Below are positions 25,021 through 39,252 of a stretch of DNA of 64,000 nt, piece after piece. Within the stretch, counting starts at the first letter, position 1. Every line of letters starts with the position of its first letter. The position numbers were made by a program, and so were the translations under genes. Origin of the DNA: Chryseobacterium lactis (GTDB lineage Bacteria; Bacteroidota; Bacteroidia; Flavobacteriales; Weeksellaceae); the NCBI RefSeq assembly GCF_003815875.1, contig NZ_CP033924.1, positions 1,302,001 through 1,366,000 on the forward strand, given 5' to 3'. The notes below the pieces were generated by a model, which was not told the DNA's origin, did no database searches, and saw nothing but the letters and a program-made list of their open reading frames with translations.

Positions 25021-25038
25021 AAAGTTTCAAATGATTTA

Positions 25039-25092
25039 AAAACAAAAAAATCTCCCAGTTTCCTGAGAGATTTTGTGGGCCCTGAGGGATTC
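25039..25092. repeat. attL: left copy of the 54-bp direct repeat
   Basis: Identical over 54 bp to 39032-39085. It contains the tRNA-Val terminator hairpin and the last 23 bases of the tRNA 3' end plus discriminator, then departs from the tRNA sequence after GGGATTC. It marks the left edge of the integrated element. Confidence 0.93.
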
Positions 25093-27659: not shown

Positions 27660-28148
27660 TTATTTTCTTCCCATATTACCCCTTATAGAGTCTATTAATA
27701 TTAGCTCTTCTCCTTTGATTTTATAAATATATTCAGGATACATTGCATCATTAATTACAAAATCTTTAAAAGTGAATTTATCTAAGTTTTTTTTCTTGTA
27801 TTCTTTAATAAAGTTCTTCCCTATCTTACTTTCATCAATAATATAAGTTGGCTTTAAATTAATATCACTATAGACTCCATAAGGGTTGTATACTTGTTTT
27901 ACACCCCTTGGTTCTAAAGTAATATGTATCAATGTGTCTTTCTCTTGCTTGTCAAAAATTAACTCAAAGATGTACTTTTCATCTTTAGGGTTAATGAATG
28001 GTGTTTTCTTTTTTATCTCTTCATCTGTGGGAATAGGATTCTTTTTCTGATAATCAAGAACTACTTTATATAAGTCATCTTGCAAACCTGATTCTTGTTT
28101 ACAGGATAAAAATATCAATCCTACCAGTACTAATAGCAGTTTTTTCAT
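27660..28148 (-). CDS. Predicted lipoprotein 3 of cargo operon
   Basis: 162 residues with a lipoprotein signal (MKKLLLVLVGLIFLSC, Cys16 lipidated), so it is anchored in the inner or outer membrane. The mature part contains PIPTDEEIKKKTPFINPKDE and a C-terminal IYKIKGEELILIDSIRGN. It shares the size and late YKIK...L..I pattern of the two preceding lipoproteins but is more distant. Its start overlaps the previous gene by 4 bases, so it is co-translated. It could be an immunity or effector lipoprotein. Confidence 0.7.
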   Translation of the reverse strand: MKKLLLVLVGLIFLSCKQESGLQDDLYKVVLDYQKKNPIPTDEEIKKKTPFINPKDEKYIFELIFDKQEKDTLIHITLEPRGVKQVYNPYGVYSDINLKPTYIIDESKIGKNFIKEYKKKNLDKFTFKDFVINDAMYPEYIYKIKGEELILIDSIRGNMGRK

Positions 28149-28678
28149 TCTGTTTTATTAAGATATTCTTTTGGAGGAGGAGGAGGAGCAGGGATTTCAT
28201 ATTCCTTTATAGGATAGAAGTACTTTCTTAAATCTCCTTTAGCTATAAGTTCTAAATGATTGACATCCTTGATTTTATACATAACACCCTTTTGATAATC
28301 ATCACCATTGTAGGCTAATGGGTACTTTTCAATATCATTCTGCTTTAGCTTGTTGGGGGTTTTAATAAGTTGAAACTTTGGGTAATATGGCTCAGTAACA
28401 ATAATTTTGCAACTGTCAGTATAAAAAGTTCCTTCTTTCTTTATCATAAAAGTAGGTTTAATAACATTTTCATATTTAACAGAAAGAATAATTAAGGTGT
28501 CATATCTGTTCAATACATAAAATAAACTTGCTTTTTTTGAAATTTCTTTATGTACTATATCAGTACTTTCTATGACTTTGTCATAGATTTCATCAGAAGT
28601 AAAATAAGGATTTTTTACCTCTTCTTTACAAGAATATAATAACATTAAGCCAAGTAGAGGAACTACTAATTTATTCAT
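28145..28678 (-). CDS. Predicted lipoprotein 2 of cargo operon
   Basis: 177 residues with lipoprotein signal MNKLVVPLLGLMLLYSC (Cys17). It is a clear paralogue of the next gene upstream: both have FYVxNRYDTLI, IKKEG, KIIVTEPYxPxFQ, YQKGxxYKIKDxNHLELI and end in EYEIPxPPxP. No known fold. Tandem divergent lipoproteins behind a secreted RHS-type gene are often immunity proteins; here that is inference. Confidence 0.72.
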   Translation of the reverse strand: MNKLVVPLLGLMLLYSCKEEVKNPYFTSDEIYDKVIESTDIVHKEISKKASLFYVLNRYDTLIILSVKYENVIKPTFMIKKEGTFYTDSCKIIVTEPYYPKFQLIKTPNKLKQNDIEKYPLAYNGDDYQKGVMYKIKDVNHLELIAKGDLRKYFYPIKEYEIPAPPPPPKEYLNKTE

Positions 28679-28687
28679 TTTCTTATA

Positions 28688-29203
28688 TTACATTGTTGGG
28701 GCAGGTGGCATAGGTATTTCATACTCAGGGATTCTATGGAAGTACTTTGTTAGATTACCTTTATCTATTAACTCCAAATGGTTTAAATCTTTTATTTTAT
28801 AAATTAGTCCTTTTTGATAATCACTCCCATCATAATAAGGATATTTTCCTTCATATTCTTTAATAGGTATAAGTTTATTATTTTCTTTTAAGAACTGAAA
28901 TGTAGGTTTGTAAGGTTCAGTTACTATAATTTTATTTTTATTATATTTAAAATAACCTTCTTTTTTTATTGTTTGGGTTGGTTGTAGTATATCCTCATGT
29001 TCAGATGACATTACTATTAGTGTATCATATCTGTTGAAAACATAAAAGATGCTGTCAGCTTTGGAAATATCTTTTTTTGCTGTATCAACCCCCTCTATTA
29101 CAGTTCTATATATTTCATCAGATGAAAAAATGTTGTTTTCATCTTGATTCTTACTGCAAGATGAAAAAAATAATAAAATAGAAAGATATATAATATTTCT
29201 CAT
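28688..29203 (-). CDS. Predicted lipoprotein 1 of cargo operon
   Basis: 171 residues with lipoprotein signal MRNIIYLSILLFFSSC (Cys16). It has the same conserved blocks as the gene at 28145 (SKADSIFYVFNRYDTLIV, KIIVTEPYKPTFQ, YQKGLIYKIKDLNHLELI) and a proline-rich end. It is the first gene after the JAB/RHS protein, 2 bp apart, which makes it the likely cognate partner. Confidence 0.74.
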   Translation of the reverse strand: MRNIIYLSILLFFSSCSKNQDENNIFSSDEIYRTVIEGVDTAKKDISKADSIFYVFNRYDTLIVMSSEHEDILQPTQTIKKEGYFKYNKNKIIVTEPYKPTFQFLKENNKLIPIKEYEGKYPYYDGSDYQKGLIYKIKDLNHLELIDKGNLTKYFHRIPEYEIPMPPAPTM

Positions 29204-29205
29204 AA

Positions 29206-30408
29206 TTACTTTCCTAGATTTTTCAAATTAATTGTACTTGTACCTAAATCCTTTTTATATATGTCTTTGTTTCTCCAATGATACATCCATAAATTACTTT
29301 TTCCTTTGCTAGGAGCATAGTATAGGTAATGAGAGGGGTAATCTGTTTTTCCTGTAGTTCTATAATAATAATTATCTCCTCCTCTTGAAATACCATAATC
29401 TCCATTAGTTTGTCCATTTATAGGAGAAGGTCCATTAACATCTTTGTGGGAGTGGATGTTAAATAATGACTTTGAAGGAGACTGATTAAAAAAATTAGGA
29501 GGAGTAGAATCATCATCATGTCCTGTAAATACAGTATAAGAAACACCCTTTCCTACTTGAAAAGCTTCTAATCCCCATTCTACATCAGAATTTTTAGCTG
29601 CAAACATAAATACATTAGCAGCATCTGTAGGATTTGTTGTTCTTCCAAAATTAATACCTTTAGGATATCTAGGTTCAGCTAATCCATAATCAGTAGCTAG
29701 GCTACTAATAATACTTCCATCATTTGGTTTAGCTTTATCTACTATAACTGGAGCTGTATTTGTCACATTTCCTTTTTTGTCAGTAGCAAATAGTCTATCA
29801 TCATTTCTTTTCTCACTTCCATCATTTGGGTCAACTCTGGTAACTGTACCATCCTGTAAAAGTTTAAAATCAGTAAAAACCTGCCTTCCATCAGGGTCAA
29901 TATTACTTATAGGATTATTCATAACCATGTTATAAGGAGACCAACTGGAATATTCTTCACTCAATGGATCAGGAGAAAACCATCTCCCTGCTGTATCTAA
30001 GTAGGGTTGTGCATCTGGGTCACTCAAATCTATCTCCCTAAACTCTGTAATCTCTTTGGTTTTCTTATTGTACTTTATAGAACCAATATTAACTACTGTA
30101 TCCATATCATGAAATTCCAGATATTTTCCTTTGCTCAGTGTTGCAATCTTAGGATAATAGCCATATTTTTTAAAAGGATTCCCAACAGCAATATTCTTTC
30201 TTCTTCTTTCTGCTTCCTCTGGAGTTAAAGTATCTCTGGTTTTAAGAACTTCATCCATATAAGGTCTACTTCTTTCTTCTTTAGTAAGTTTTACAGGATT
30301 AATCCATTTCTTTTCACTTGTTGGCTTAAGTTGGGTTTTCTTAACCTGAGCCTGTGTAATTCCAGTGAGAAGTACACATCCAGTCAGTACAATTCTTTTC
30401 ATAGTCAT
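29206..30408 (-). CDS. Secreted RHS-core protein with JAB/MPN-like C-terminal domain (putative toxin)
   Basis: 400 residues. A signal peptide (cut after about residue 20, GITQAQ) is followed by a conserved linker (YGYYPKIATLSKGKYLEFHD) and the end of an RHS-associated core (AGRWFSPDPLSEEY, SPYNMVMNNPISNIDPDG, about 140-178). The variable C-terminal part (180-400) has HSH at 319-321, Ser328 and Asp337, with an upstream glutamate in EWGLEAF. This fits a JAB1/MPN-like toxin domain (zinc peptidase fold), but the serine-aspartate spacing is longer than classical. The large RHS shell is missing. It is probably a polymorphic-type toxin; this remains a prediction. Confidence 0.72.
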   Translation of the reverse strand: MTMKRIVLTGCVLLTGITQAQVKKTQLKPTSEKKWINPVKLTKEERSRPYMDEVLKTRDTLTPEEAERRRKNIAVGNPFKKYGYYPKIATLSKGKYLEFHDMDTVVNIGSIKYNKKTKEITEFREIDLSDPDAQPYLDTAGRWFSPDPLSEEYSSWSPYNMVMNNPISNIDPDGRQVFTDFKLLQDGTVTRVDPNDGSEKRNDDRLFATDKKGNVTNTAPVIVDKAKPNDGSIISSLATDYGLAEPRYPKGINFGRTTNPTDAANVFMFAAKNSDVEWGLEAFQVGKGVSYTVFTGHDDDSTPPNFFNQSPSKSLFNIHSHKDVNGPSPINGQTNGDYGISRGGDNYYYRTTGKTDYPSHYLYYAPSKGKSNLWMYHWRNKDIYKKDLGTSTINLKNLGK

Positions 30409-30411
30409 TTG

Positions 30412-31527
30412 TTATTTTGTAAAGTTATTCATTAATTTTTTATTCTCATATTTATCTCTCTCAGTTCTAAGAGAAACAAGCCAGTCTAAATACATTTCCT
30501 CTGGCATTTGTCTGTAACCTATGTCATAAATATGTCCATATTCCTGTGTCATAAGCTCCATGAGTTCCTTTGCTGTAGAGTCTTTCTGCTGAATTATTTT
30601 CAGGTTTTGTGGATTGTCAGTTTTGAGATTGTATTTATCCATTAACTTAGTAAACTGCTCTTTATGTGTTTCAGCCCTAAGAATAAGAGCTTTGGCAAAA
30701 TTGGGGTAAACCTCTATTGCCCTGTTTACAGCTTTTAATACAAATTCTCCATCATTGCCAGGGAAATTCCTATTGTAAGCCTGTGCTAAATCAAATAAGC
30801 ACAATGCTAAACTTTCCTTATCATTCAAAGCCTTCATAAACACACCATTTTTAATGGCATCTAGGTGTATATATCCAGAAGCCATGAGCCATGAATCCTG
30901 AGGGAACATCCCACTGGTAAGCTCTGTATTGTACCATCCATCAGATTTAATCTGATGTTTAATGTACACATGATTAGGAGCTAAGGCTAAATTGGCTGTT
31001 TCTCCTAATTCTTCTGCCAAAATCTTATACAGGTAAGGCATAGAATTACAATTTCCTTTCTTGGTAGCCAACAATTTTGAAACAAACAAATTAGTAATAT
31101 CATTATGCCCAAATACATCATTAAAATCATAATTGAAAGGCTTATACTGTATTACTGTATCTTTTACAGCAATAGGCAAAGTCTGGCACATAATAGAGTA
31201 TATTGCTGCATATTTGCTTACTCTGTCTTTATCAGACTGTTTGTAGGTTAAATCCCTGTTAGCTACAATAGTTTTGGCAAACTTTGTTAAGAACCTGATT
31301 TCATTATTGAGCTGTACTGTGTCTAATTTCCCCTGATAATAAGCATTTTCCACACTGAATACAGCCTCTTTGAAGCTGTATTTTTGCTTATTATTCAGCA
31401 TATTGTCAATGGTCTGGTAGGAATCATTGTAGAACTGATTATTTTGAGCCTTGACTATTCCTGAACTTAGCCATACAAATACTAAGGATATAAAGGATAT
31501 AGTTTTATGAGATAAATATTTTTTCAT
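30412..31527 (-). CDS. Secreted transglutaminase-like cysteine-protease-fold protein (paralogue 2)
   Basis: 371 residues with a signal peptide ending near SSGIVKAQ. The core VSKLLATKKGNCNSMPYLY gives Cys160, LALAPNHVYIKH gives His186, and WYNTEL gives Asn200/Glu202. This is a Cys-His-Asn/Glu arrangement of transglutaminase-like/SirB1 folds. The C-terminal 130 residues are helical and TPR-like (NRAIEVYPNFAKALILRA). It lies outside the cytoplasm. It starts with ATG sharing one base with the stop of the upstream paralogue. A peptidase or transamidase role is plausible; the substrate is unknown. Confidence 0.8.
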   Translation of the reverse strand: MKKYLSHKTISFISLVFVWLSSGIVKAQNNQFYNDSYQTIDNMLNNKQKYSFKEAVFSVENAYYQGKLDTVQLNNEIRFLTKFAKTIVANRDLTYKQSDKDRVSKYAAIYSIMCQTLPIAVKDTVIQYKPFNYDFNDVFGHNDITNLFVSKLLATKKGNCNSMPYLYKILAEELGETANLALAPNHVYIKHQIKSDGWYNTELTSGMFPQDSWLMASGYIHLDAIKNGVFMKALNDKESLALCLFDLAQAYNRNFPGNDGEFVLKAVNRAIEVYPNFAKALILRAETHKEQFTKLMDKYNLKTDNPQNLKIIQQKDSTAKELMELMTQEYGHIYDIGYRQMPEEMYLDWLVSLRTERDKYENKKLMNNFTK

Positions 31528-32981
31528 TATAGTTTATTAGGGTCTATAGGGAAATACTGTGGTTTCTCTGATTCTTTTTTCTTTTGTTCCTGAGCTTTTC
31601 TTAAAGATTCCTGTTGTTTCTGTTTTTGCTTTTCAGCATTAATCTGTTTCATTCTTTCAGCAAGAGCTTCACTTTTTTGTCTGTTGGCTTCACCTTTCAT
31701 ATTCCCCAACCACTCTTCATAAGCTCCTTCTGGCATGGGTATATAACCCAAATTGTCAATATTATTAAACTGGGCTTTAGTTTCCTGTAACAGAGCCAAT
31801 GCTCTTGGATAAAATCTGATATTTTGTAGTTCCTCAGGATTTTCAAGGTTCTTAATTCCTAATTGACCTGCTACATATTGCAGTTTAGCTTGTTGAAAAG
31901 TTGATTTTAGCAGGTTTGCATAAATATTTTTGGGTGAATATTCCAGAGCTTTATCCAAAGTCTTACCCACAAACTCATCCATTCCATATTTATGGGCATA
32001 GCCATTAGCTAAATCTGCATAGAATTGGGCTAATAGCTCTTTTTTGCTCTGTTCTTTCATATAAATATCATTCTGCAAAGCTTCTGATTTTATATAGCCT
32101 GATTCCAGAATTATTGAGCTTGTAGTAAATATACCATTGGTTAATTCTGCATTTTGCCATTCCCCCTCTTCATCCTTAAACTTGACATAAGTATGGTTTG
32201 GAGCAAAGGCTAAATGAGCTTCTGCATTCATTTCCTCTGCCAGCATCAAATAATATAAAGGCATGGAGTGACATTGCCCAGAGCCTGTTTTAAGGAGTTT
32301 GGAAACAAACATTTTACTCCAATCCTTTGCACCCATGTAATCCTCAAAGTCATACTTGATAGCTTTGTGCTGAACTCCTCCAAGCTTCATACCTTTAGAA
32401 AGATATTCAAAAATCATCAGATTTTTATCTGTATTACTTTCAAGATCCTGCTTTCTCTCTTTCATTTTCTGTAAGAGTTGTTTTGCTGTTTTCTGAATTC
32501 CAGATTTAAACTGATTATAATTTTGTTTATCTCCATAATAAGCATTCTCCACAATGAAATTAGCTTCACTTATAGAGAAATTATTACTATCAAGTCCAGA
32601 AAGTTTATTAAAGGCATCATAATAAGATTGTGTTCCTGCTTTACCTGAAAATGAAGGGAGGTTATAATAAGAATCTTCTAAGGCTTGTTGTCTGTAATAG
32701 TTCTCCTGTTTATTTCTGAGTTCCTGCTCCTTAGCTACTTTCCTAAAATCTTCTTCCATCATTCTTGCATTCTGTTGCTGAATCTGTGAGCTTCTAGAAT
32801 TGTACAACCCACCATGAGGAACAGAGGGAACTACAGACTTTGCTGGACTGATATAATTCTGATTAGAGTAATTATGAAAACTACTGGCATTAGGTCTTGA
32901 TGTAGTAGGTAAATTAGGAATTTGCCCCAATCCACACATACTGATACAAAACAAAGGCAAAATAAGTAGCTTTTTCATCAT
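31527..32981 (-). CDS. Secreted transglutaminase-like cysteine-protease-fold protein (paralogue 1)
   Basis: 484 residues. A signal peptide (MMKKLLILPLFCISMCGLGQ) is followed by a long Ser/Asn/Gln-rich linker (about 25-105). The transglutaminase-like core shows GSGQCHSMP (Cys237), FAPNHTYVKF (His263) and WQNAEL (Asn277). A TPR-like segment comes next (DKALEYSPKNIYANLLKS), then a highly charged tail. It is the first gene of the six-gene cargo operon and about a quarter longer than its paralogue because of the N-terminal linker and the tail. Confidence 0.8.
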   Translation of the reverse strand: MMKKLLILPLFCISMCGLGQIPNLPTTSRPNASSFHNYSNQNYISPAKSVVPSVPHGGLYNSRSSQIQQQNARMMEEDFRKVAKEQELRNKQENYYRQQALEDSYYNLPSFSGKAGTQSYYDAFNKLSGLDSNNFSISEANFIVENAYYGDKQNYNQFKSGIQKTAKQLLQKMKERKQDLESNTDKNLMIFEYLSKGMKLGGVQHKAIKYDFEDYMGAKDWSKMFVSKLLKTGSGQCHSMPLYYLMLAEEMNAEAHLAFAPNHTYVKFKDEEGEWQNAELTNGIFTTSSIILESGYIKSEALQNDIYMKEQSKKELLAQFYADLANGYAHKYGMDEFVGKTLDKALEYSPKNIYANLLKSTFQQAKLQYVAGQLGIKNLENPEELQNIRFYPRALALLQETKAQFNNIDNLGYIPMPEGAYEEWLGNMKGEANRQKSEALAERMKQINAEKQKQKQQESLRKAQEQKKKESEKPQYFPIDPNKL

Positions 32982-33132: not shown

Positions 33133-33822
33133 ATGTTAAATGAACTTATTCAATTCTATTATAAGAACTTAACTTTAACAGGCTTAATAAAAAAATATTT
33201 TTCTTTTTATTTCTATCTTGTTATAATTATTTATCTTATTCTAGGGGCAGGTATTATATATTTATTCATTATAAAGGATAATCTTTGGTGGTTTTCTCTT
33301 ATTGTTCCATTGCTTGTAGCACTTATGTATGTTATGAAGCTTCTTAGTTATTATACTCTACTAAAGGTATTTCCAGAGTGTACTAAGAACAAAAGTTATG
33401 ACTTAAAAAAATTGAATACTTATTTTTTTGAAGAGTTAGAAAAATATTTAAAAAGTCAACATTTGATTGAAATGGAAGATAACATTATATCTCTATTGAA
33501 AGAAAAGTCACAATCATTGAAAATCCCATTTATATTTATTTCAGGAATATTCTCTGTTCTTTCACTCAGTGTTTTTAATTCTTTGTGCCAAAAATTATAT
33601 GATATTAGTGAAAAAAACTTGAAGGAAATCCTGCTAACAACCATTTTGCTATTTATGATTATTGCATTAGTTATTCCAATATTGTATTATGTCAGAGATT
33701 TTTATTTTAGCTATTATACCCAATATACTAAAATTAACAATTTAATTAACATGTTAGAAGAACACAAACTGAAAAAGAATAGAGAATCTATAAAAAATAA
33801 AAACTACCCCATAATAAACTAA
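33133..33822 (+). CDS. Four-helix membrane protein, unrecognised (element)
   Basis: 229 residues. It has two N-terminal hydrophobic segments (YLVIIIYLILGAGIIYLF, WWFSLIVPLLVALMYVM), a polar, lysine-rich middle of about 60 residues, two further segments (IPFIFISGIFSVLSLSVF, ILLTTILLFMIIALVIPILYYV) and a basic cytoplasmic tail. No family is recognised. It is transcribed divergently from the cargo operon. Pore, anchor or exclusion roles are all possible. Confidence 0.6.
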   Translation: MLNELIQFYYKNLTLTGLIKKYFSFYFYLVIIIYLILGAGIIYLFIIKDNLWWFSLIVPLLVALMYVMKLLSYYTLLKVFPECTKNKSYDLKKLNTYFFEELEKYLKSQHLIEMEDNIISLLKEKSQSLKIPFIFISGIFSVLSLSVFNSLCQKLYDISEKNLKEILLTTILLFMIIALVIPILYYVRDFYFSYYTQYTKINNLINMLEEHKLKKNRESIKNKNYPIIN

Positions 33823-36133: not shown

Positions 36134-37564
36134 ATGTTTAATAGAAAAACTGGCTCTGCATTAATATCCAGTTTAAATAATAATTATAGCCCAAATCAGA
36201 ATGCAGGATTTGTTAGTAATGGCTATGAGAGAAGAAGTTCTTTAACTTTATATGTTCCAATGAAAATTGACATAGATGAGATACTGCTTAGAAATCCACC
36301 AGATTTTGAATATGACAGGGATAAATTTGTATATATTCTTCATTTAATAAGCTCTATACCATCAAGAAAGAATAATGTTTTAGATAATAATGCAGGTTAT
36401 ACTCCTGTTAATAAAAGATTATTACAAAGAAGAATTCACAATTACTCTAAGTATATTGACTATTTGGCAGAAAAAGGGCTGGTTGAAGTAGATAAACAAT
36501 TTATTCCAGACAAAAAGTCAGGAGGGTTAAAATTCTCAAAAGAATATATTTCTGTTTTAGTTCCAGTTGAAATAACTAAATGGACATTAATAAAGAGTAT
36601 ATTATATCTTAATCAGAACAAAAATAATCTTTTAACAGAGGGTTTAACATTTCTGAAGAAGTGGTTTGAAGATGGAAAACTTACAGTTAACTTTGAGGGA
36701 GCAAAAGAAGAGCTAAATAAGTTAGCAATTGAAGAAGAGGAATTAGGCTTGCCTAATATTCAGGAAAGATTTAATTCCAGATTAGTTCCCTTGCTTGAGT
36801 TAATGTCTGATTATACTGTTTTTGGAGTAGATAATACTGGTTATAGACTTCATACATCTATTACAAGGTTAAAGAAAGAACTGAGAAAAAACATTAAATA
36901 TGATAACAAGACTCTTGTTTCCATTGATATTGTTAATTCACAGCCTTTTTTGACCCTTCCTCTTTTTGATTTAGAAAAGATTCATACAAATGATATCTTG
37001 TCAAAAATTAAGAGTCCTCTTTATTTTCCAAATTCTGAAATGTCTGATACATTATTAAAGACTATAGAAATGGTAAAAGATGAGGAAGATGTTAAAATTT
37101 TCATTGATTGTGTTTGGAGTGGTAACTTTTATGAGAAGTTTGGGGAGATTCTTCAAAAAGAAGAAATTTTACCAAATGAAAGTTTTCAAGGACTAAGAAA
37201 AAAGGTCAAAGAGATTACCTTTGAATCTATTTATAGTCCTAACACCTCTATTGCTTACAGTAGCTGTGTAAAGATTTTTAAAAGTACATTTCCAAATGTT
37301 TACAAGATTTTTGAGTTAATAAAAACTGGTAGAGGAAATCATCCTGCTTTTTCAATTATGTTACAAAGACTTGAATCTGAATTAATTTTAGAGAAAGCTT
37401 GTAAAATAATAAACAGAATAAATCCAGAGATACCACTTTTTACTATTCATGATTCTATTGCAACAACAGAGGAACATACAACTTTTGTTGAAAATATTAT
37501 GACAAAGGTTTTTACAAAGTATATAGGAAAATCTCCTAAATTTAAATTAGAGAGGTGGGATTAA
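36134..37564 (+). CDS. Compact family-A-like polymerase-fold protein (element)
   Basis: 476 residues, cytoplasmic. Three polymerase motifs stand in order: A, SIDIVNSQPF with Asp265; B, LRKKVKEITFESIYS with Arg355, Lys359, Phe363 and Tyr367, spaced exactly as R754-K758-F762-Y766 of E. coli Pol I; and C, TIHDSIATT with His439-Asp440. Before C, the helix MLQRLESELILEKACKI resembles the Pol I/T7 RNAP equivalent. There is no exonuclease domain; the first 240 residues are unlike Pol I. Motif C with HDS recalls T7 RNA polymerase, while Phe363 favours a DNA polymerase. It is probably the replication polymerase or primase of the element. Confidence 0.7.
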   Translation: MFNRKTGSALISSLNNNYSPNQNAGFVSNGYERRSSLTLYVPMKIDIDEILLRNPPDFEYDRDKFVYILHLISSIPSRKNNVLDNNAGYTPVNKRLLQRRIHNYSKYIDYLAEKGLVEVDKQFIPDKKSGGLKFSKEYISVLVPVEITKWTLIKSILYLNQNKNNLLTEGLTFLKKWFEDGKLTVNFEGAKEELNKLAIEEEELGLPNIQERFNSRLVPLLELMSDYTVFGVDNTGYRLHTSITRLKKELRKNIKYDNKTLVSIDIVNSQPFLTLPLFDLEKIHTNDILSKIKSPLYFPNSEMSDTLLKTIEMVKDEEDVKIFIDCVWSGNFYEKFGEILQKEEILPNESFQGLRKKVKEITFESIYSPNTSIAYSSCVKIFKSTFPNVYKIFELIKTGRGNHPAFSIMLQRLESELILEKACKIINRINPEIPLFTIHDSIATTEEHTTFVENIMTKVFTKYIGKSPKFKLERWD

Positions 37565-37573
37565 CCACCTCTT

Positions 37574-38767
37574 TTACTGTAATTTAGAATTTAACCTATT
37601 CATCTGTTCACCAACTTTTTCCTTTACAACCTTAGCATAATGTTGCTGAGTAATTCCAATCTCTGAATGACCTAAAAGCTCAGATACTATCTCCATAGGT
37701 ACATCATTATAAAGTAGAATAGTGGAAGCAAAGGTTTTTCTGGCTATATGATGGGTAAGAGTCTTATTGATACCTACAATCTCAGCTATCTCCTTTAGAT
37801 AAGAATTGAACTTCTGATTAGTTATAACAGGGAGAAGCTGAGTTTCTGTTCTGTATTTATTCAAAATACTTTCAGCTTTAGATAACAATGGAATGTCATA
37901 ATCTCTCTTAGTTTTCTGTCTATGAATATGAATCCACTTATTACTATCATAGCCTGTCTGAATATCATTTGCCTTTAAGTTTGACATCTCTGTATATGCT
38001 AATCCAGTATAACAACAGAAAATAAACATATCAGCAACTTGTTGTAATCTTTCAGATGCAAATTGGTATTTCTCCAATGCTTCCAACTCTTCTTTAGATA
38101 AGAATACAACTTGTTTCTTAGGTTTCTTGTTCTTGTAGAGTAGGAAAGGGTCTTTAGCTAAGTAGTCCAGTCCTACAGCTAACTTAACAATCTGTTTGAA
38201 TCTTTGTATAGTTTTATGAACTGTGTTCTGCTTAAACTGCTTCTCAGCCTTTAGATAGAACTCAAACTCAGTAATAAATGCCATAGTCATGTCTATAAGA
38301 AGGTAATCAGATTTTTTGTACTGATGCTTTATGAAAGACTTTACATGAGCCTGTGTCTGGTAGAACTTAGCTACAGATACTTTAGTGGTAGAAATACCTA
38401 TCAGCTTTTCCTGTTTAGTGATATGAAGGAGGAACATTTCAGTAATTGATTTATCCTGCTTGATATTTTCTCCTTTGTACTGTTTGTAAATATCATCTAC
38501 ATCAAAGTCCTTTTCCTGAACTTGTAGGAATAAAAAAGCCTGATTAATGTCTTGTTTAATCAGGCTTAGTTGAGTGTTGATTTGATTATTTATTTTATTA
38601 GGAGGAAATGCCTTTTGCTTTGCAGCATTCCAAGAATTTGGGTTTATAAAAACACCTGTTGAGAAAGGTTTTCTTTGGCTGTCTAAAGTGATTCTACATT
38701 CAATTGCACAGACTCCTTTTGTGTTAATTCTGTTTCTTCTGATTAAAAATAGTATTGAAAGTTTCAT
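37574..38767 (-). CDS. Tyrosine recombinase/integrase of the element
   Basis: 397 residues. It has an N-terminal arm-binding-like domain (1-100), a SAM-like core-binding domain (105-210) and a catalytic domain. Box I reads CCYTGLAYTE with Ala257 where most enzymes have Arg, a substitution known in Bacteroidota IntDOT-like integrases. The other residues are in place: Lys287 region (RQKTKRDY), HIAR (340-343), LLGHSE His367 and nucleophile Tyr377. It lies next to attR and five GGTAACYTRA repeats, and should catalyse integration into and excision from tRNA-Val. Confidence 0.92.
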   Translation of the reverse strand: MKLSILFLIRRNRINTKGVCAIECRITLDSQRKPFSTGVFINPNSWNAAKQKAFPPNKINNQINTQLSLIKQDINQAFLFLQVQEKDFDVDDIYKQYKGENIKQDKSITEMFLLHITKQEKLIGISTTKVSVAKFYQTQAHVKSFIKHQYKKSDYLLIDMTMAFITEFEFYLKAEKQFKQNTVHKTIQRFKQIVKLAVGLDYLAKDPFLLYKNKKPKKQVVFLSKEELEALEKYQFASERLQQVADMFIFCCYTGLAYTEMSNLKANDIQTGYDSNKWIHIHRQKTKRDYDIPLLSKAESILNKYRTETQLLPVITNQKFNSYLKEIAEIVGINKTLTHHIARKTFASTILLYNDVPMEIVSELLGHSEIGITQQHYAKVVKEKVGEQMNRLNSKLQ

Positions 38768-38936: not shown

Positions 38937-39031
38937 AATTCTGCCTTAAAATTGAAAAATAATGAGATTTAAAAACTTAGGATTTAAATAAGAATTGCTG
39001 TAAACTCCCATGAATAGAGAAGAAAAGTTTT

Positions 39032-39085
39032 AAAACAAAAAAATCTCCCAGTTTCCTGAGAGATTTTGTGGGCCCTGAGGGATTC
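39032..39085. repeat. attR: right copy of the 54-bp direct repeat
   Basis: Exact match to 25039-25092. It continues into the intact tRNA-Val gene, so integration regenerates the tRNA 3' end and its terminator. Confidence 0.93.
39036..39066 (-). terminator. Terminator of tRNA-Val genes
   Basis: On the minus strand AATCTCTCAG-GAAA-CTGGGAGATT forms a 10-bp stem with one G-T pair and a GAAA tetraloop, followed by a T-run. A second copy lies in attL at 25043-25073. Confidence 0.85.
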
Positions 39086-39143
39086 GAACCCCCGACCCTC
39101 TGGGTGTAAACCAGATGCTCTGAACCAACTGAGCTAAGAGCCC
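39069..39143 (-). tRNA. tRNA-Val (anticodon TAC), copy 2
   Basis: 75 bases including the discriminator A; CCA is not encoded. The acceptor arms GGGCTCT/AGGGCCC pair over seven positions. The D-stem is GCTC/GAGC, the anticodon stem TCTGG/CCAGA with loop TTTACAC, so the anticodon is TAC (valine, GTA). The T-loop TTCGAAT is normal. Its 3' end is the attachment site of the element. Confidence 0.96.
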
Positions 39144-39177
39144 TGAAATTTTTTAAAAGGCTTCAGTATCCTTTTTG

Positions 39178-39252
39178 TGGGCCCTGAGGGATTCGAACCC
39201 CCGACCCTCTGGGTGTAAACCAGATGCTCTGAACCAACTGAGCTAAGAGCCC
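39178..39252 (-). tRNA. tRNA-Val (anticodon TAC), copy 1
   Basis: Same 75 bases as the neighbour at 39069, separated by 34 bp and transcribed first. Tandem identical tRNA genes probably share one promoter to the right. This copy is not disturbed by the element. Confidence 0.96.

What the first reader, a model, noticed from the sequence alone, without database searches (positions are those of the whole stretch)
27660..32981. Six-gene cargo operon: two secreted transglutaminase-like proteins, a secreted RHS-core/JAB-like protein and three lipoproteins
Genes run in one direction with overlaps or gaps of at most 9 bp. All six products carry export signals. The RHS-core remnant and JAB/MPN-like C-terminus suggest a toxin module without its large shell; the lipoproteins are candidate immunity proteins, and the Cys-His enzymes could process or cross-link the effector outside the cytoplasm. 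I know no named system with this composition.
Basis: partly seen in the sequence, partly recalled or inferred. Interest (0 to 1): 0.8.

Follow-up and report, generated by a model that had tools for sequence, protein, structure and literature searches.

The report
Shell-less RHS toxin with menin-fold enzymes
A mobile stretch of bacterial DNA carries an exported protein predicted to be a toxin, lipoproteins that likely protect its owner, and two exported, likely enzymatic proteins, one of them modelled and predicted to fold like the human protein menin, that would likely trim the toxin outside the cell interior; the same gene set, with toxin ends swapped, recurs in many Bacteroidota.

The parts
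31527..32981 (-). TG1: exported transglutaminase-like protein, long paralogue (484 aa); C237-H263-E279 predicted triad
30412..31527 (-). TG2: exported transglutaminase-like/TPR protein, short paralogue (371 aa); C160-H186-E202 predicted triad; predicted menin-like fold
29206..30408 (-). Shell-less RHS toxin candidate (400 aa): signal peptide, constant leader to about residue 174, half RHS core (131-174), JAB/JAMM C-terminus (about 256-397; E277, H319, H321 invariant in 57 of 57)
28688..29203 (-). Lipoprotein, candidate immunity protein; paralogue of the next gene; relatives lie beside JAB-type toxins in L042 and L044
28145..28678 (-). Lipoprotein, candidate immunity protein (tandem paralogue; 146-nt block 71% identical)
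27660..28148 (-). Third lipoprotein, no relative among the other 13 loci clustered; role unknown, immunity by position only
37574..38767 (-). Tyrosine integrase of the island
25035..25092 (+). Island end: 58-nt direct repeat (att)
39028..39085 (+). Island end: matching 58-nt repeat (98%), overlapping the 3' end of tRNA-Val
39068..39143 (-). tRNA-Val (tac), integration target; a second copy at 39177-39252

Best explanation
This operon is most likely a mobile polymorphic toxin-immunity system: it encodes an exported, shell-less RHS protein whose JAB/JAMM end is predicted to be the toxin, lipoproteins that would shield the owner's envelope, and two exported proteins (TG1, TG2), predicted to be menin-fold cysteine enzymes, that would grip the half-RHS-core leader and cut the toxin free. 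Shown here: constant leader with swapped C-termini, matched swapping of the downstream gene, near-obligate coupling of leader, TG1 and TG2, an invariant Cys-His-Glu in both TGs, and the island with its att sites. Predicted: the menin-like fold (modelled for TG2; TG1 is its homologue) and the JAMM fold. Inferred: toxicity (metalloprotease action in the envelope of a rival), immunity, and that the leader is the TG substrate. Least certain are the chemistry (cutting is preferred to cross-linking because no Gln column of the leader is conserved and the transglutaminase-like proteins LapG and McjB are peptidases) and the step across the outer membrane, for which no component was found.
Against: No activity has been measured. 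The leader is low-confidence in the model, so no binding mode can be read. Foldseek gives menin only E 4.7e-3 and sequence profiles do not link the TGs to menin. The window TGs fall below the Pfam transglutaminase cut-off. The third residue of the triad is Glu. A Lys column of the leader (K95, 93%) is conserved, which a cross-linker could use. No dedicated outer-membrane exporter is in the operon. The rhizobial arrangement fits ligation of toxin to shell as well as cutting.
Confidence: 0.7

Rival explanations
1. The TGs are transamidases, not peptidases: they covalently attach the half-core toxin to an RHS shell made elsewhere, to the cell surface, or to each other, so that the toxin is displayed or loaded rather than released.
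For: On rhizobial plasmids the RHS core is split over two genes with a TG gene between them; such a split would need rejoining or non-covalent assembly. K95 of the leader is conserved in 93% of 87 leaders. Zhang et al. 2012 (PMC3482391, passages) proposed anchoring for inactive N-terminal transglutaminase domains of RHS toxins.
Against: No Gln column of the leader reaches 85% identity over 87 leaders; no shell-like gene was seen in the Bacteroidota loci.
Confidence: 0.25
2. The TGs act as menin does, as non-catalytic peptide-binding scaffolds or chaperones that hold the half-core and keep the toxin inactive until export.
For: Menin-like fold over most of TG2; human menin binds a short MLL1 peptide in a pocket that holds Ser155 and His181 (PMC8022399, passage), 26 residues apart as are our Cys and His.
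Against: Cys, His and Glu are invariant in 166 of 166, which a pure scaffold would not need.
Confidence: 0.15
3. The RHS gene is an orphan tip cassette, a silent reservoir for recombination into full-length RHS genes of the same genome.
For: Extra toxin copies behind TG fragments or with a truncated leader occur in L044/L071 and L116; RHS-core hits with long open frames are common in the genus.
Against: The gene has its own signal peptide and a conserved leader stretch (residues about 77-109) upstream of where most canonical RHS hits begin (about residue 100 or later; a few begin at 83-96, one decayed hit at 64); it is kept with TG1 and TG2 across the phylum.
Confidence: 0.07
4. The TG proteins are themselves the effectors (for example wall or protein cross-linking) and the RHS protein is their partner.
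For: Transglutaminase-like domains are used as toxins elsewhere (PMC3482391, passages).
Against: TG1/TG2 are constant while the RHS C-terminus and the downstream gene vary together.
Confidence: 0.05

Closest known systems
Polymorphic toxin systems, RHS type (Zhang et al. 2012, PMC3482391)
   Same: Constant N-terminal part, variable C-terminal toxin domain, immunity gene downstream, RHS core motif before the toxin. Its table lists 'Proteases: Transglutaminase' for two RHS toxin families, Ntox13 and Ntox10, the latter in Bacteroidetes (passages)
   Different: No RHS repeats or shell; only the second half of the core; two separate exported transglutaminase-like proteins with complete Cys-His-Glu. 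The text seen there describes inactive transglutaminase domains fused N-terminally to RHS arrays
TANFOR polymorphic toxins of Bacteroidetes (Jana et al. 2020, PMC7073777)
   Same: Bacteroidota, signal peptide, swapped C-termini, immunity gene
   Different: Large proteins with a TANFOR domain and a proposed type IX route; no TANFOR hit here; the word transglutaminase is absent from that paper's main text
Transglut_core2 / SirB1-like proteins (PF13369)
   Same: Transglutaminase-like domain followed by TPR; rhizobial relatives pass the Pfam cut-off
   Different: Here exported, in pairs, with a toxin; below the Pfam cut-off themselves
Menin (PF05053)
   Different: Exported bacterial proteins with the catalytic Cys; no sequence-profile match. 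PMC10318531 (passages) calls menin solely eukaryotic, with Ser in place of Cys, and says some family members keep the full triad
LapG (C93), periplasmic transglutaminase-like protease
   Same: Exported transglutaminase-like cysteine enzyme acting on an exported partner protein
   Different: LapG releases large adhesins under c-di-GMP control (search listing and abstract starts only; the rest recalled); nothing of that kind was annotated here

Membership tests
Polymorphic toxin systems | Constant N-terminus with unrelated C-termini | tested here: met
   Leader 0.77, different-group C-termini 0.21, shuffled 0.20 over 38 toxins with the Chryseobacterium-type leader
Polymorphic toxin systems | C-termini from known toxin families | tested here: met
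   Of 31 toxins scanned (30 representatives of 94 plus the window's), 9 hit a toxin or effector family above its cut-off: Toxin-JAB1 1, Tox-REase-7 2, TreTu_C 1, Tox-MPTase2 2, Peptidase_M91 1 (25.7 bits, cut-off 25), Ntox17 1, Ntox44 1
Polymorphic toxin systems | Cognate immunity gene downstream | tested here: met
   By position and matched swapping only: 64 of 320 same-group pairs and 0 of 3166 different-group pairs share the gene, not corrected for relatedness
Polymorphic toxin systems | Toxicity and its relief | not testable with these tools
   needs the bench
Full RHS proteins | RHS repeats forming a shell | tested here: not met
   No RHS_repeat hit in the 400-aa protein; only TIGR03696 positions 33-75
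JAMM/MPN peptidases | Conserved Glu and His-x-His metal site | tested here: met
   E277, H319, H321 invariant in 57 sequences; PF15659 above cut-off; zinc and activity not tested
JAMM/MPN peptidases | JAMM fold | tested here: met
Transglut_core2 (PF13369) | Profile score over the curated cut-off | tested here: not met
   14.7 and 12.2 bits against 23.5; rhizobial relatives score 25.9 to 50.5, so the link is transitive
Transglutaminase-like cysteine enzymes | Cys-His-acid triad | tested here: met
   166 of 166, acid is Glu; activity not tested
Menin (PF05053) | Sequence profile | tested here: not met
   No match in the window's genome at E up to 10
Menin (PF05053) | N-terminal helices, transglutaminase-like domain and TPR in one fold | tested here: met
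TANFOR toxins | TANFOR domain (TIGR02542) | tested here: not met
   NCBIfam scan of the toxin gives only Rhs_assc_core
Type IX substrates | C-terminal sorting domain | tested here: inconclusive
   No such NCBIfam match in the six proteins; a diverged signal is not excluded

The most novel reading that the evidence does not exclude
TG1 and TG2 are living, catalytic bacterial relatives of menin: they take the loose half-RHS-core peptide into the pocket that menin uses for MLL, and cut or join it in trans. A toxin system that lost its RHS shell, and with it the shell's own protease, replaced both by a pair of menin-fold enzymes, and menin itself would descend from such an exported bacterial peptide-processing enzyme by losing the catalytic Cys.
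Probability: 0.27. Interest if true: 0.93.

Novelty: new variant of a known kind. Interest (0 to 1): 0.8.

Why it matters
RHS toxins are understood as shells that hold and cut their own cargo (recalled). Here the cargo end lives without a shell, in many Bacteroidota, and is nearly always accompanied by two dedicated exported proteins that look like enzymes; on rhizobial plasmids the core is split in two with one such protein encoded between the halves. That makes a concrete, testable claim about trans-acting maturation of RHS toxins, gives a genome tag (TG1-TG2-leader) for finding new toxins and immunity proteins, and offers candidate bacterial counterparts for menin, a drug target in leukaemia that has been described as solely eukaryotic (PMC10318531, passages).

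Tried and rejected
Anti-phage defence: no PADLOC hit in the ten proteins scanned except one at E 0.47. BSAP-5i immunity match of 28688 (18.1 bits, cut-off 150): residues 4-60 only, far below the cut-off, rejected. Type VI dependence: sheath family PF05943 is absent from 173 of 173 genus genomes, but this model may miss the Bacteroidetes type, so inconclusive. Phage origin: no match in 50,697 phage records; three viral-collection contigs carry both TGs with, by eye, a leader-like ORF beside them; they were not counted. Sequence link to menin: the Pfam profile and a core profile against PDB sequences both failed; a likeness of the menin stretch around His181 is recalled and shown by no call. Rhizobial TG in viral contigs: none. 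The phylum-wide search (7 of 395 genomes) scored at most four candidates per genome and missed two of the six known genes of the window's own genome, so it is a lower bound; the surroundings of its five hits outside the genus were not looked at. A motif test for shell genes in the Bacteroidota loci found none in 93 ORFs of 600 aa or more; shells elsewhere in the genomes were not searched for. No paper naming this gene set was found in the searches, all in an open-licence library only.
Full report
1. The observation. Six genes on the minus strand, 27660-32981, with overlaps of at most 4 bases and gaps of at most 9 bases, are present as described. Three products have lipobox signal peptides and three type-I-like signal peptides (read by eye). 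The 400-residue protein holds the end of an RHS core (TIGR03696) and Toxin-JAB1 (PF15659).

2. Where it sits. The operon is cargo of a 14.0 kb island: 58-nt direct repeats at 25035-25092 and 39028-39085 (98%), the right one overlapping tRNA-Val, and a tyrosine integrase at 37574-38767. Three relatives were compared at this site; all have the two tRNA-Val genes and none has the island. In two (L140, L142) the flanks abut directly; in L141 971 bases lie between that do not match the island.

3. The gene set recurs. The window's genome has two further loci with both TG paralogues and a leader of 67-69% identity but another C-terminus. In 173 genomes of the genus, leader hits with E up to 1e-20 number 57, four of them under 400 nt, in 38 genomes (the next hits are RHS cores at E 1.6e-17 and worse). 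TG hits longer than 850 nt number 102, in the same 38 genomes. Of 57 leaders 56 have a TG (full or fragment) within 8 kb on the same strand, 51 with two long TGs (23 both upstream, 28 one on each side); the one without, in G108, is a partial leader. None of 102 long TG hits lacks a leader. Eighteen shorter TG pieces exist, and seven genomes have only such pieces and no leader. Some match to the leader query, mostly RHS cores, occurs in 159 of 173 genomes, so TG is tied to this leader and not to RHS in general.

4. Beyond the genus. A scan of named genomes with the TG alignment kept the best 78 distinct loci out of 244 relatives, in Chryseobacterium, Flavobacterium, Sphingobacterium, Aquimarina, Tenacibaculum, Polaribacter and others. 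By rule, 74 of 78 have two TG ORFs of at least 300 residues and a leader ORF of at least 250 on one strand; L110 has the three genes with a shortened TG1 ORF, L125 has both TGs and an 89-residue leader piece near its contig end, and L113 and L121 run into contig ends. These loci were found by TG, so one TG is there by construction; the second TG and the leader are not. A few loci are the same places as ones fetched earlier under other ids; identical proteins were counted once in the protein counts.

5. It is a polymorphic toxin-immunity system. There are 94 distinct leader proteins, pieces included, in 37 C-terminal groups. The 38 with the Chryseobacterium-type leader and a long C-terminus share 0.77 identity in the leader on average; pairs from different C-terminal groups share 0.21, shuffled sequence 0.20. 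Pfam scans of 30 of the other 93 give Tox-REase-7 (2), TreTu_C, Tox-MPTase2 (2), Peptidase_M91 just over its cut-off, Ntox17 and Ntox44 above cut-off, and weaker Reprolysin/M10, M91 and cell-wall hydrolase hits; 17 of 30 have no hit at E up to 0.01 and two more only hits to non-toxin families. Of 94, 84 have a C-terminus of at least 150 residues and a gene within 60 bases downstream. Among these, homologous downstream genes occur in 64 of 320 same-group pairs and 0 of 3166 different-group pairs, not corrected for relatedness. With a crude signal rule the group holding Tox-REase-7 and TreTu has downstream proteins without export signal in 15 of 15, the other groups in 3 of 69; of 711 other ORFs of similar size in loci L053-L130, 535 lack one. 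So the compartment of the presumed immunity protein follows the toxin type, and the window's lipoproteins point to an envelope target for the JAB protein (inference). Relatives of lipoproteins 28145 and 28688 lie beside JAB-type toxins in L042 and L044.

7. The leader. Over 87 leaders (7 of 94 dropped as short or weak: L042, L044 9502, four of L091, L125) the columns with at least 85% identity include N77, P78, F79, T90, L91, S92, G94, K95, E98, I108, G109, R142, W143, D147, P148, P158, Y159, P166, D171, P172 and G174; none is Gln. Residues 133-184 of the alignment profile match YenC2 650-700 (E 1.1e-4), in the RHS core. In the toxin model (mean pLDDT 70.2) residues 127-177 are below 50 while residues from about 181 are mostly confident; residues 258-397 match JAMM proteins. 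So the half-core looks like a loose peptide when its shell is missing.

8. The rhizobial clue. TG relatives occur in 5 of 72,556 plasmid records. In Neorhizobium (L132) and R. lentis (L133) a shell gene of 1855 or 1832 residues ends in or soon after the first half of the RHS core; then comes TG; then a small gene that begins, after a signal-like stretch, with the second half of the core. In L133 that ORF as called starts upstream of the signal-like stretch, so its true start is a guess. L132's shell has RHS repeats and TcdB_toxin_midN. R. leguminosarum (L134) shows a 146-residue ORF ending like such a shell, TG, and a small gene beginning with the second core half, with an unsplit RHS core nearby. 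Two Mesorhizobium plasmids have TG and a half-core gene behind a Tn3 transposase, without a shell in the stretch seen. The TG gene therefore travels with the half-core even where a shell exists.

9. Mechanism. Chain: export by Sec (sequence reading), TG1/TG2 act on the half-core leader (inferred), toxin released or displayed (inferred), delivery to a rival (unknown route), action by the variable C-terminus, protection by the downstream gene (matched swapping shown, activity untested). Cutting is preferred to cross-linking at roughly two to one.

10. Known or new. Polymorphic RHS toxins, JAB toxins and transglutaminase-like proteins are each known. PMC3482391 (passages) describes inactive transglutaminase domains fused to RHS toxins and lists 'Proteases: Transglutaminase' for Ntox13 and for Ntox10, the latter in Bacteroidetes; PMC7073777 (outline and passages) describes the TANFOR class. 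The two-enzyme, shell-less combination was not found in the searches listed under Tried and rejected, all in an open-licence library.

Noticed in passing
L015, L016, L048, L049, L051, L078, L081, L085, L086, L093, L095, L096, L097, L128: Relatives of a TonB-dependent receptor, FecR and sigma-factor trio lie in the same stretch (beside TG1 where looked at), and the toxins of these loci, where grouped, are all of the Tox-REase-7 group, as if the operon were switched on by a surface signal. L047 and L050 show FecR and sigma only.
   Followed up: partly
L044:7109-10359 and L071; L116:5730-6957: Extra toxin genes behind a 75-82 residue TG tail or with a truncated leader, like orphan cassettes.
   Followed up: partly
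L046:11320-13431: TreTu-type toxin followed by a 95-residue gene and a macro-domain protein, possibly immunity against an ADP-ribosylating toxin.
   Followed up: no
window 36134-37564 and L046:5475-7037: The same kind of 476/520-residue protein (no Pfam hit for the window's) lies near the system in two different genomes; may belong to the mobile element.
   Followed up: no
L042:8679-9871: JAB-type toxin gene broken into a 215-residue and an 86-residue ORF with the immunity genes kept.
   Followed up: no
G004, G080, G098, G133, G151, G164, G173: TG fragments in genomes without a long TG hit: decayed loci.
   Followed up: no
window 33133-33822: Divergent ORF with hydrophobic, membrane-like segments (by eye) and no family, next to the start of the operon.
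   Followed up: no
L136, L137, L138: Three contigs of the viral collection hold both TGs and, by eye, a leader-like ORF; in L137 the order is reversed: leader, lipoprotein-like gene, TG2, TG1.
   Followed up: partly
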